Shown here one piece after another: positions 5,401 to 29,425 of a DNA stretch of 64,000 nt. Source of the DNA: Apostichopus japonicus (taxonomy: Eukaryota > Echinodermata > Holothuroidea > Aspidochirotida > Stichopodidae); NCBI RefSeq assembly GCF_037975245.1, contig NC_092580.1, forward strand, positions 25,464,501 through 25,528,500. The letters run 5' to 3'. Position 1 is the stretch's first letter. The number at the start of each line of letters is the position of its first letter. The translations under genes were made by a program, and so were the position numbers. Under the pieces are notes generated by a model, which saw only the letters and a list, made by a program, of their open reading frames with translations, had not been told where the DNA came from and ran no database searches.

Positions 5401-8400
5401 TGCCAACTTGCTCCGTGACAGTACGGCATCTTAATTTAAGAAAAAAAACTTCATAAATAAGATGTTCATGGAGTATTATATTTCTCAGTCTTAAAGTAAA
5501 TAACAATGTCCAATTCAATTAAGTACAGCAATATTCATTGGGTTTGTTTACATGAAGGTGAGTTGTATTCTTGGTGTGTGCTTTAAAAGTATCATAAACA
5601 CATGCTTTAAAGACAATAGAAACGTTCCTTATTATGTATTCTTTCCTACGGTTTCAGACGCAAGTGAATGTCAAGTGCCCAAGAACGGATCTTCAAAGGC
5701 TGTTACAGCTGTTGTAATAGTTATCATTGTGTGTGTGCTCATGATTTCCGTTTTGGCTGCAACATTCTTTATCAAGCGAAGAGGTATATATATGAAAAAG
5801 TTACTATATATATATGTCAATATGCCCCCCGTTTGAAATATCGCATGTTTTAAAAGCATGGACGCCAATTTACCGAATTCTTAATTTAATACCGAATTTG
5901 TTTTTTCCGTCCTTGAGAGCTTGCCGGAGAGCACAACTGATTAACTTTGATTGTATATACTAAATTTGATTTTCATGTATGTGGCAGAACTCGTTGTTTA
6001 TACTAGATTAAACATCCAGTTCAAAAAATGTCTTATTTGCGTTTTCTTCAAAGGCCGTTCGAAAAGAGAACCTGGCAGTAGTGGGATGAATATGTCCCAT
6101 ATAGAATCACAAGACACAGACACGGCAGATCCGAAACAAAATGAGTCAACCAATACGGATCACGAAAAGGAACCACTGTTACAGGGGCCGCTGGTACGAT
6201 TGTTTTCGAATTTTGTAACTTGAAGCTAGATAATTTAGGGTCATATTGCATCTAAGATTGTATGTTAAGTATTATGATTACGTACGTATTTTCAAACACA
6301 TCTAACTTTGTATTTAGAAATTCCATGTAATGTATTTTCAAACACTTATTGGAATAATTCCTACTGTAAATATATTGGCTTTCATTTAGCAGTTCGTCCT
6401 CAATTTCATTCATACTTTAATTACAGCTAGAATTCGACAACCTTTTCAAGCCCTTTTACGAAAAAATAATTGCTGGCAAGGTAGAAGCTCTTTGTATTTT
6501 TCGAATTCATTTTCTTTTCTTTTTCGTTTTCTTTCTTTATTTTTTTCTTTCTATATTTTACCATTGGAGCAAGTTTGAGTAATTTATGATCTATCTTTCA
6601 GTACCTTATATTATTTGCAACACATTGCCAGCATTTTGCCGTCAACCATTCAGGGTTGTAACAAGGGCAGAATCCCTGATTTTAAACTGTAGAAACTACT
6701 TATATGTATCGTCTTCTTGAACTTTGCTTAATTGATAAGTTCTGATATAGTGTTGTTCAGAGTTATAATTAAGTATACTTATCATACTTTCTTCATTTAT
6801 ATCAACTAATAAAAAAGTTCAGTACTTCAGGTAGCAAATCTACTCATCTTTTTTCAAGTTTTTGAATTAAAGAATAGACTATTAAATATATTTTTCTGAT
6901 CATTAGTCTTCTAAGGAAGAAGAAAGCATTTTACAGATAATATTCATATTCAAATATTCCTGTCTTCATTTTCTTTTCGTTGTTATATTTATATTAACCT
7001 TGGCTCTCTAGGCAACAGACGAAGAGTTTCAACGTCTATTGATAGAATTCAAAGATTTGCACAAGGTTAGTTTACAACAAATGTTATTGCCACACTGAAA
7101 CTAACATGTTAGCATTAAATTGACAATTACATTATTAAAAATGCGTTCATTGATGTTATTGTCTAATAAATTTAAAATATTATTTTCGAATAGGATACCG
7201 AGGTCAGAGAGTTTCTAGGGAAAAGTATATCAAATTTGAATCCTTCCAAAGAGGTAGGTAAAAAATTATAAAGTGAGTCATATTCTAGTTTCTGCTATCC
7301 ATAGTTTCACTATTACATAATATATTGTCCATCACTTAAAACTTGACATCAAGTTACTACATAACTGTATTGTTATACATTGACTCTACTTCCACTGCTC
7401 AATAAATATCATTGTGTAAAGGCTGATAGAGTGAGACAAAGAGGTTAACAAAGAATTCCAGTATATTCATGAACGTTAGTACGCGATTAAAAACATTGAG
7501 AAGGTACTGCAGAGTTGATAACGTTCATTTTCAGACTGATTTGTCTTGATCGTTGAAAAACCGATTAAGTGCGCACTATGAAAACAAACCATAACCTTCA
7601 TTCCCCTTTCTGGTTTTTAAAGTTAGATTAACCAAAATGACATATTTTGAGGAACAAAATCAATATTTAGCAAATATAACTTCAAATATTTTCTTTCTTC
7701 TATCAGGAGCTACTTGCTATTGCTAACTTCTTCTCGACCAGTAAATGGGTAAGAAATCATATCATTTGAAGAAATTATTTGATTGCCTTCTCAATTCATG
7801 CTGTACATTCCCCTTTAACAATGTAACTAAGCTTTATCAAATCATAAGCAATTGTTACTTCCATGTACATTGTTCAACTATATTTGTTCAAGTTTTGAAA
7901 ATCATATATGATTTTGTTCCATTAGTATTGTAGTTTTTATCATATATGATTTCTTCAGATTTCCCATGAGGGGCTCGTTGCAGTGCTGCGGACTGTGCTG
8001 GAAATGAAACAGGTACTTATCATATGACTATAACTTTCCGTATAGTACATTTATGTTACCCTCTTTGAAAGGTTGCCAAATATTAATAGGTTTGTGTAAG
8101 CACTCAAAACTCAAGGGAAAAGTGAAAAATACAATAATGGTGCATGCTTGTTCTTTCCTTTTTCAAAAACTCAAAACAAACAAATAAACATACGTCCGTC
8201 GTTGCAATGGGTTATCTGTTTTTTCGTATTTTTTCATTGCTGCATATTTGTTTTCTGTTTGACCATGGCACTGGAAGGTAGGTCAAACGACGAATCCTAC
8301 GTTAAGTGGATGTAAAATGGAATTGGGCCACTAACGAGTCACCTATTCTGTGTATTCCTAACTTTATATGATTCCTTAAGTAAACCAGGCTGCTAGCATT

Positions 8401-29425: not shown

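What the first reader, a model, noticed from the sequence alone, without database searches (positions are those of the whole stretch)
6427..29425. A cytoplasmic tail built from about 43 near-uniform 54-nt symmetric exons
Seen: after the juxtamembrane exon, every coding exon is phase 0-0 and nearly all are exactly 54 nt, with exceptions of 24, 27, 42, 48, 57 and 60 nt. Each encodes about 18 residues with a shared pattern (hydrophobic at 1, acidic at 4-5, hydrophobic at 6, 9-10 and 13, basic or Gln at 18). Gene 2 repeats the architecture. Known: uniform 54-nt exons are famous in fibrillar collagens, where they follow Gly-X-Y; here the protein is not collagenous. Inference: a separate protein family expanded by duplication of one short exon, behind an Ig ectodomain.
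Basis: partly seen in the sequence, partly recalled or inferred. Interest (0 to 1): 0.9.

Follow-up and report, generated by a model that had tools for sequence, protein, structure and literature searches.

The report
Ig receptors with helix-per-exon tails
In a genome that is probably a sea cucumber's, a small family of immunoglobulin-type surface receptors appears to carry a long internal tail built from dozens of tiny exons, each probably encoding one short protein helix, a design that could let tail length change one helix or helix pair at a time.

Summary
Gene 1 (window 2382-29425) encodes a signal peptide, a V-set-like domain, two further ectodomain exons, one TM segment, a juxtamembrane exon that shifts intron phase from 1 to 0, then 43 phase 0-0 tail exons, 33 of exactly 54 nt. 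Gene 2 repeats it. The gene 1 tail gives 33 strong mini-exon candidates, against 1 antisense and a mean of 0.7 in 30 shuffles. Among four tandem paralogs, 1,077-1,353 aligned exonic bases hold 0-1 gap positions, against 38-64 per kb in introns; dN/dS is 0.43-0.50. Six of eight divergent Ig relatives were read; all six have mini-exon tails, less uniform in length; five more distant V-domain loci do not. Modules share a helix-cap pattern and helical amphipathicity. In two of four genes they alternate (p 0.01-0.02), suggesting 36-residue hairpins; recent amplification in genes 1 and 4 copies two exons together. Pfam, NCBIfam and PDB sequence searches name nothing. Best reading: V-set receptors with an undescribed alpha-solenoid-like tail, one helix per exon. 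No RNA and no tail structure were available.

The parts
2382..2430 (+). gene 1 signal-peptide exon (49 nt)
   Evidence: open frame from ATG, donor gtaaaa
2911..3228 (+). gene 1 V-set-like Ig exon (phase 1-1)
   Evidence: Pfam V-set 23.9 bits, E 5.1e-5, below cut-off 26; gene 2 homologue 29.2 bits passes
3783..4421 (+). gene 1 ectodomain exon (639 nt, phase 1-1), Ig-like only by weak matches
   Evidence: no Pfam match on its own at E 0.01; weak C2-set_2 in the whole ectodomain
5031..5366 (+). gene 1 ectodomain exon (336 nt, phase 1-1)
   Evidence: no Ig model at E 0.01
5658..5783 (+). gene 1 transmembrane exon, followed by KRR
   Evidence: TM read from the sequence
6054..6193 (+). gene 1 juxtamembrane exon, phase 1 to 0; carries EKEPLL, an acidic-dileucine-type motif kept in all 4 paralogs
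   Evidence: the motif class is recalled
6427..6480 (+). tail exon 1, 54 nt [18 protein letters not shown]
7012..7065 (+). tail exon 2, 54 nt
7194..7253 (+). tail exon 3, 60 nt
7707..7748 (+). tail exon 4, 42 nt, ends in W, as likely counterparts in g5, g6, c3.038 and C12 do
7959..8012 (+). tail exon 5, 54 nt
8469..8522 (+). tail exon 6, 54 nt
9260..9313 (+). tail exon 7, 54 nt
9456..9509 (+). tail exon 8, 54 nt
10552..10605 (+). tail exon 9, 54 nt
10914..10973 (+). tail exon 10, 60 nt
11467..11514 (+). tail exon 11, 48 nt
11843..11899 (+). tail exon 12, 57 nt (added by hand)
12567..12620 (+). tail exon 13, 54 nt
12856..12912 (+). tail exon 14, 57 nt
13051..13104 (+). tail exon 15, 54 nt
13350..13403 (+). 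tail exon 16, 54 nt
13980..14033 (+). tail exon 17, 54 nt
14512..14565 (+). tail exon 18, 54 nt (A-type module by its gene 2 counterpart)
14717..14770 (+). tail exon 19, 54 nt (B-type)
15124..15177 (+). tail exon 20, 54 nt (A)
15792..15848 (+). tail exon 21, 57 nt (B)
16347..16400 (+). tail exon 22, 54 nt (A)
16535..16588 (+). tail exon 23, 54 nt (B)
17677..17730 (+). tail exon 24, 54 nt (A)
17933..20366 (+). 490-bp tandem repeat x5 with tail exons 25-29: identical 54-nt [18 protein letters not shown] exons (18018, 18509, 18999, 19461, 19955) behind A-rich acceptors; use doubtful
20562..20615 (+). tail exon 30, 54 nt
21083..21136 (+). tail exon 31, 54 nt
21409..21462 (+). tail exon 32, 54 nt [18 protein letters not shown]
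22575..27415 (+). amplified block, tail exons 33-39: [16 protein letters not shown](N/D/G)L at 22575, 23206 / 24371, 24993 / 26158, 26789 / 27362; two-exon unit of about 1.79 kb
28531..28584 (+). tail exon 40, 54 nt
28739..28780 (+). tail exon 41, 42 nt
29010..29033 (+). tail exon 42, 24 nt KKLYKKLK
29399..29425 (+). terminal coding exon 43, 27 nt, FSSDKGGK stop
40365..40643 (+). gene 2 V-set homology (exon ends not fixed; no gene 2 signal exon assigned)
41678..44016 (+). gene 2 ectodomain exons (41678-42322, 42848-43183), TM exon (43483-43608) and juxtamembrane exon
44251..62771 (+). gene 2 tail: 38 phase 0-0 coding exons, 28 of 54 nt, last 62745-62771

Best explanation
The window holds two tandem members of a family of single-pass V-set immunoglobulin receptors. 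Their cytoplasmic tail (about 470-740 residues in the four close paralogs) is a long all-helical tandem-repeat domain, most likely an alpha-solenoid-like rod or superhelix. Each short phase-0 exon encodes one amphipathic helix of about 13 residues plus its cap: hydrophobic residue 1, Asp/Ser/Thr/Asn N-cap at 2, acidic residue at 4-5, hydrophobic 6, 7, 9, 10, 13, 14, Lys/Gln at 18. In the distal half, neighbouring exons alternate between two types, so a 36-37-residue helical hairpin is the probable unit. Because every tail intron is phase 0 and would sit between helices, unequal recombination in introns can add or remove whole helices or hairpins, and exon skipping could do so at RNA level, without breaking frame. 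Proposed role: the V-set end binds a ligand; the solenoid is an intracellular docking scaffold whose length and surface vary between paralogs; a conserved juxtamembrane EKEPLL sequence suggests dileucine-dependent endocytosis. Shown: exon architecture, coding conservation, family distribution in the loci read, recent two-exon duplication. Inferred: topology, helices, solenoid fold, scaffold and endocytic role, alternative splicing.
For: Exon chain and chance controls. Coding selection: 0-1 gap positions per 1,077-1,353 aligned exonic bases against 38-64 per kb in introns; dN/dS 0.43-0.50 for 24-35 paired exons in six gene pairs. Mini-exon tails in 6 of 6 divergent Ig relatives read (9-28 sense candidates; 0-1 in the four antisense controls run) and 0-1 candidates at 5 of 5 distant V-set loci. 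Helix: in-register module similarity 1.02 against -5.24 +/- 0.59 in 200 class-preserving shuffles; the moment of the mean hydropathy profile is largest at 100 degrees; 10 Pro in the 743 tail residues of gene 1. Two-exon unit: even-odd and lag-2 tests p 0.012-0.022 in genes 2 and g3; two-exon duplications of 1.79 kb in gene 1 and alternating copies in g4. EKEPLL in 4 of 4 paralogs.
Against: No RNA or protein evidence. Alternation is absent in genes 1 and g4 (even-odd p 0.68 and 0.92; lag-2 p 0.21 and 0.53); their lists differ there (g4 lacks much of the distal part, gene 1 lacks two of the modules). In the divergent relatives the lengths are less uniform: 54 nt is 15 of 28 (g5), 13 of 19 (g6), 3 of 10, 4 of 12, 6 of 9 and 7 of 10 candidates. 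Collinearity of their modules with gene 2 is significant, uncorrected, for 3 of 6 (g6 p 0.005, C12 0.030, c25.261 0.035; not g5 0.94, c25.367 0.19, c3.038 0.51). dN/dS near 0.45 is only moderate constraint. g4 has no V or signal exon that I could recognise.
Confidence: 0.62

Rival explanations
1. The tail is helical but is a chain of degenerate EF-hand-like units: B-type modules would be F-helices of EF-hands that lost their calcium loops.
For: B modules ([10 protein letters not shown].., [10 protein letters not shown]..) match the register of EF-hand F-helices by eye (recalled); the two-exon profile weakly picks a myosin light chain (E 0.18) and a sarcoplasmic Ca-binding protein (E 1.1), both through its second half.
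Against: No EF-hand model among Pfam matches at E 1 or below; no EF-loop-type pattern (D.[DNS].[DG]G) in the four paralog tails; the best PDB sequence match is ribosomal S25 (E 0.044) and none of the six listed is significant.
Confidence: 0.1
2. A splicing-diversified, flexible linker or spring (as in titin PEVK, recalled, or schistosome micro-exon genes): the modules have no common fold and the tiny symmetric exons serve isoform diversity.
For: All tail exons are symmetric, so any subset can be skipped in frame; schistosome micro-exon genes work that way (PMC4350168, passages).
Against: Helical pattern, low proline, purifying selection and one-to-one exon pairing among paralogs argue for a folded repeat domain. 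It is not exclusive: a folded solenoid could also be alternatively spliced.
Confidence: 0.18
3. Decaying or non-functional exon arrays spread by segmental duplication.
For: g4 has no recognisable V exon or 5' end; the VELEEN copies of gene 1 have A-rich acceptors; dN/dS near 0.45.
Against: Strong gap depletion in exons against introns in all six paralog pairs and dN/dS well below 1. Open frames and AG/GT in the chains are no evidence here, since candidates without them were not considered.
Confidence: 0.07

Closest known systems
Fibrillar collagen genes (54-bp exons)
   Same: Runs of 54-bp in-frame exons, each giving 18 residues, thought to grow by exon addition (PMC4450265, abstract and passages).
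   Different: No Gly-X-Y (15 Gly in 743 residues); helical pattern, behind an Ig ectodomain and TM; unit set by a helix, not by a triple helix.
Schistosome micro-exon genes
   Same: Most of the coding region in very small symmetrical exons, which permits in-frame alternative splicing (PMC4350168, passages).
   Different: The passages seen describe secreted or gland-associated proteins; here the exons are nearly uniform, encode one recurrent helix pattern and lie behind a V-set/TM receptor.
Alpha-solenoid repeat proteins (TPR, PPR, HEAT, Armadillo)
   Same: Tandem helical hairpins, of about 34-37 residues in TPR and PPR (recalled).
   Different: No Pfam repeat family matches the tail; one helix per exon is not a feature I know of in these families; fold untested.
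AjNLRC4 of Apostichopus japonicus (Ig + NACHT membrane receptor)
   Same: Ig-type membrane receptor of probably the same species, whose extracellular Ig domains bind microbes and whose intracellular part drives phagocytosis (PMC8699970, abstract and passages).
   Different: Its cytoplasmic part is a NACHT domain and it has two TM segments; here a mini-exon helical tail and one TM.

Membership tests
Immunoglobulin superfamily, V-set | Match to the V-set profile above the curated cut-off | tested here: met
   Gene 2 V domain 29.2 bits and paralog g3 28.4 (cut-off 26); gene 1 23.9 bits, below it
Immunoglobulin superfamily, V-set | Ig fold of the other two ectodomain exons | tested here: inconclusive
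   No Ig model at E 0.01 for either gene 1 exon alone; weak C2-set_2 match in the whole ectodomain, E 0.006, below cut-off; structure tool off
Fibrillar collagen | Gly-X-Y repeat in 54-bp exons | tested here: not met
   15 Gly in 743 tail residues of gene 1
Known helical repeat (TPR, PPR, HEAT, ARM) | Profile match to a known repeat family | tested here: not met
   No repeat family among Pfam matches at E 1 or below for the gene 1 and gene 2 tails (terminal exon left out, VELEEN given once) and five partial tails of relatives; HMMER's filters drop most matches above about 0.1
Alpha-solenoid (as a fold) | Stacked helical hairpins | tested here: inconclusive
   Amphipathic 100-degree periodicity and A/B alternation in 2 of 4 genes; no structure
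EF-hand | Calcium-binding loop of the DxDxDG type | tested here: not met
   No such pattern in four tails; no EF-hand Pfam match at E 1 or below
Micro-exon genes | Alternative splicing of symmetric micro-exons into isoform pools | not testable with these tools
   No RNA data; only the symmetry is shown

The most novel reading that the evidence does not exclude
A metazoan receptor family that can be re-tailored at both ends: the ligand-binding V cassette with its promoter has been replaced at a sharp breakpoint, and the intracellular alpha-solenoid is a one-helix-per-exon array that grows in two-exon (hairpin) steps and may be tuned by in-frame exon skipping, giving a docking scaffold of adjustable length.
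Probability: 0.35. Interest if true: 0.85.

Novelty: new variant of a known kind. Interest (0 to 1): 0.72.

Why it matters
If true, exon boundaries coincide with the boundaries of single helices across a whole domain, with exon amplification caught at near-identity next to old, diverged modules. That makes the question of how solenoid repeat proteins grow (helix by helix or hairpin by hairpin, by intron recombination) directly testable in one locus. It also points to an Ig receptor family, in what is probably a commercially important echinoderm, whose cytoplasmic tail matches no family in the libraries searched.

Tried and rejected
Collagen: no Gly-X-Y. Known repeat or domain families: Pfam, NCBIfam and PDB sequence searches gave only weak matches. 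The lowest Pfam E-values for tails, B-block_TFIIIC (0.00095) and TFIIA_gamma_N (0.0033), are below their curated cut-offs, as are the others, and cover stretches of 15-80 residues. EF-hand: considered because of the F-helix register; not supported. Immune tyrosine motifs: no ITAM-type pair in four tails; 0-3 ITIM-like sites per tail, not shared by all. Retrocopy check: a 270-residue spliced query (15 proximal modules) gave 39 matches, all at the four paralog loci, exon by exon; no intronless copy among them. Local hhalign against tiny EF-hand, PPR and TPR profiles was uninformative.

Failed or corrected steps: searches used a wrong frame; one search crashed after the gene 1 list and was redone; one search timed out and was redone; one search gave no alignments because of invalid gap costs and was redone; the gene 1 model printed has its last exon one base off, corrected; the gene 2 and g3 V domains carried one to four residues that I added by hand, so the values used here are those. 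Exon lists of g3 and g4 are minima: a 57-nt exon with both splice sites at 25554478 in g3, a 54-nt one behind an AAG acceptor at 25774977 in g4 and a VDKESF-type module near 25778629 in g4 were dropped by the score filter.

Collinearity: the test against gene 2 failed for 3 of 6 relatives. Among the relatives, g5-g6 and c25.367-c25.261 exceed all 100 permutations, and of the other 13 pairs 6 have p 0.05 or below, uncorrected. The single module matches quoted are the best of 72 comparisons; many of the rest do not exceed their eight shuffles. A parallel run of exon lengths in relatives was seen by eye only and is not used as evidence.

Literature: ten searches (10 was for the species and 67 for micro-exon genes) showed no description of such a tail in their listings, and two papers searched for terms (PMC13228809, PMC13428168, passages) gave none. 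The library holds only open-licence PMC papers, so this does not show that none is in print.

Full report
SOURCE. The window is C20:25,464,501-25,528,500 of an unnamed assembly of 671,581,487 bases in 35 contigs. Size, scaffold number (34) and largest pseudo-chromosome (46.02 Mb; contig C16 here is 46,036,110 bases) agree with the published Apostichopus japonicus assembly (PMC10344927, passages only). The species name is an inference.

THE OBSERVATION. Gene 1 reads as signal peptide (2382-2430), V-set-like exon (2911-3228), two further ectodomain exons (3783-4421, 5031-5366), TM exon (5658-5783) and juxtamembrane exon (6054-6193), which spliced give 1,608 nt without a stop. These exons join in phase 1, and the juxtamembrane exon ends in phase 0. 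From 6427 on, 43 coding exons follow, all phase 0-0: 33 of 54 nt, 3 of 57, 2 of 60, 2 of 42, and one each of 48, 24 and 27. Gene 2 has 38 such exons, 28 of 54 nt. Introns of the gene 1 model have a median of 456 nt.

CHANCE AND ARTEFACT. With splice-site scores alone, 53 open 54-nt candidates were found on the + strand of the window; the next commonest lengths had 8 and the commonest lengths on the - strand 6. With a score that also rewards the module pattern and the length 54, the gene 1 tail gave 33 candidates, its antisense 1, and 30 Markov shuffles a mean of 0.7 (maximum 3); gene 2 gave 33 and 0. Six 10-kb loci around the cluster, both strands, gave 0-3. The three in L015 are end exons of paralog g3; the three in L023 are 42-nt look-alikes of one another in an upstream locus (see Noticed in passing).

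CODING STATUS. Four close paralogs lie on C20: genes 1 and 2 here, g3 (second ectodomain exon at 25.543 Mb) and g4 (25.766 Mb). Their curated tails have 42, 37, 36 and 27 mini-exons, terminal exon not counted; the g3 and g4 lists are minima. In six pairwise genomic alignments of the proximal tail, exonic positions hold 0 or 1 gap positions (1,077-1,353 aligned bases) while introns have 38-64 gap positions per kb; identity is 0.890-0.912 in exons and 0.845-0.871 in introns. dN is 0.08-0.11 and dS 0.18-0.22, ratio 0.43-0.50. This is moderate purifying selection on a protein. The chains were curated partly by paralog similarity, so identity is biased towards conservation; the gap contrast is less so.

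FAMILY. The 212-residue ectodomain exon finds 15 matches in the genome at E 0.01: the four paralogs (81-100% identity), eight divergent relatives at 26-36% (seven on C20, one on C12) and three weak ones on C16 and C17, not followed. Six of the eight were read for 10 to 27 kb downstream. All six show sense-strand mini-exon tails (9 to 28 candidates); the four tested on the antisense strand show 0-1 there. Their lengths are less uniform: 54 nt is 15 of 28, 13 of 19, 3 of 10, 4 of 12, 6 of 9 and 7 of 10. Five more distant V-set loci (C12:25.16, C9:24.46, C16:45.16, C16:29.32, C1:17.446 Mb), read for 10 kb, show 0-1. So, in what was read, the tail marks one branch of a larger set of V-like exons (150 matches, the number scored being capped at 150 of 380 candidates). 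Some tail modules of relatives clearly resemble those of the window, e.g. tail exon 1 against NKFNNSFQPIFSGIIAES on C12 (score 33, best of eight shuffles 18) and gene 2's tail exon 5 against ISSSKVVKLLNTVLEKQQ in g6 (45 against 23). A whole-array collinearity test is significant for g6, C12 and c25.261 but not for g5, c25.367 and c3.038.

MODULE. Twenty-four non-redundant 54-nt modules of genes 1 and 2 show: residue 1 I/V/L/M/A in 23 of 24; residue 2 D/S/T/N in 16; 4 acidic in 13; 6 hydrophobic in 20; 10 hydrophobic in 22; 18 K or Q in 17. I read residues 1-6 as a hydrophobic-staple/capping-box helix start (recalled motif). The mean hydropathy profile has its largest moment at 100 degrees. Similarity in register is 1.02 against -11.6 to -20.5 in circular shifts and -5.24 +/- 0.59 in class-preserving shuffles: more than a hydrophobic pattern is shared, by descent or by helix rules. 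In genes 2 and g3, modules two apart are more alike than neighbours (lag-2 excess p 0.017 and 0.022; even-odd difference p 0.012 and 0.021), not in genes 1 and g4. I infer a 36-37-residue hairpin in the distal tail.

DUPLICATION IN PROGRESS. In gene 1 a unit of about 1.79 kb, carrying two exons ([18 protein letters not shown] and ..EDL), is repeated: segments D2, D3, D5 and D6 are 97-99% identical between copies, D4 98% and 80%, D1 95%, 84% and 60% (the lower values are older or out-of-phase copies). In g4 two exon types alternate over five exons; gene 2 and g3 have five and four diverged copies. The VELEEN exon is repeated five times in a 490-bp tandem in gene 1 with A-rich acceptors; whether these are spliced is open.

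MECHANISM. The best reading is given in Best explanation. The four tails show no ITAM-type pair and no PxxP (juxtamembrane exon not scanned) and the gene 1 and 2 tails no enzyme domain, so docking through the solenoid surface is the most natural role; the conserved EKEPLL in the juxtamembrane exon suggests endocytic sorting. Both steps are inference.

NOVELTY. Libraries and ten literature searches gave no match (see Tried and rejected). Symmetric mini-exon genes and helical repeats are known kinds; their combination as a one-helix-per-exon receptor tail is, as far as these searches reach, undescribed, hence 'new variant of a known kind'.

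Noticed in passing
window 2382-3282: Sequence similarity of gene 1 to genes 2, g3 and g4 starts abruptly at about 3282, in the intron after the V exon; upstream only part of the V exon aligns (67% nt to g3) while downstream blocks are 76-91% identical. This looks like replacement of the V cassette with its 5' end.
   Followed up: partly
C20:25580684-25580974 (L016 coordinates 2184-2474): A V-set exon close to those of genes 2 and g3 with no match to the next ectodomain exon nearby: a possible orphan V cassette.
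   Followed up: partly
C20:25754600-25765000 (L017, L018): I found no V or signal exon for paralog g4; homology begins after the V exon, and upstream lies a tandem array of about 800-bp units with an inverted match at 25.584 Mb.
   Followed up: partly
   Followed up: no
C20:25446433, 25447825, 25448529 (L023): Three 42-nt mini-exon candidates with similar peptides (KSSQDDYETVVNQE, KSSQDDNEKGDNQE, NSSKDDYEKVEIKE) upstream of the window: possibly another gene with repeated mini-exons.
   Followed up: no
window 17933-20366: Five-copy 490-bp tandem repeat, with TA tracts, multiplying a mini-exon whose acceptor is A-rich in all five copies.
   Followed up: partly
window 49125-49821: Two-copy 343-bp tandem repeat (94%) starting at the end of the 48-nt exon of gene 2; no such row for gene 1 at this score.
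   Followed up: no
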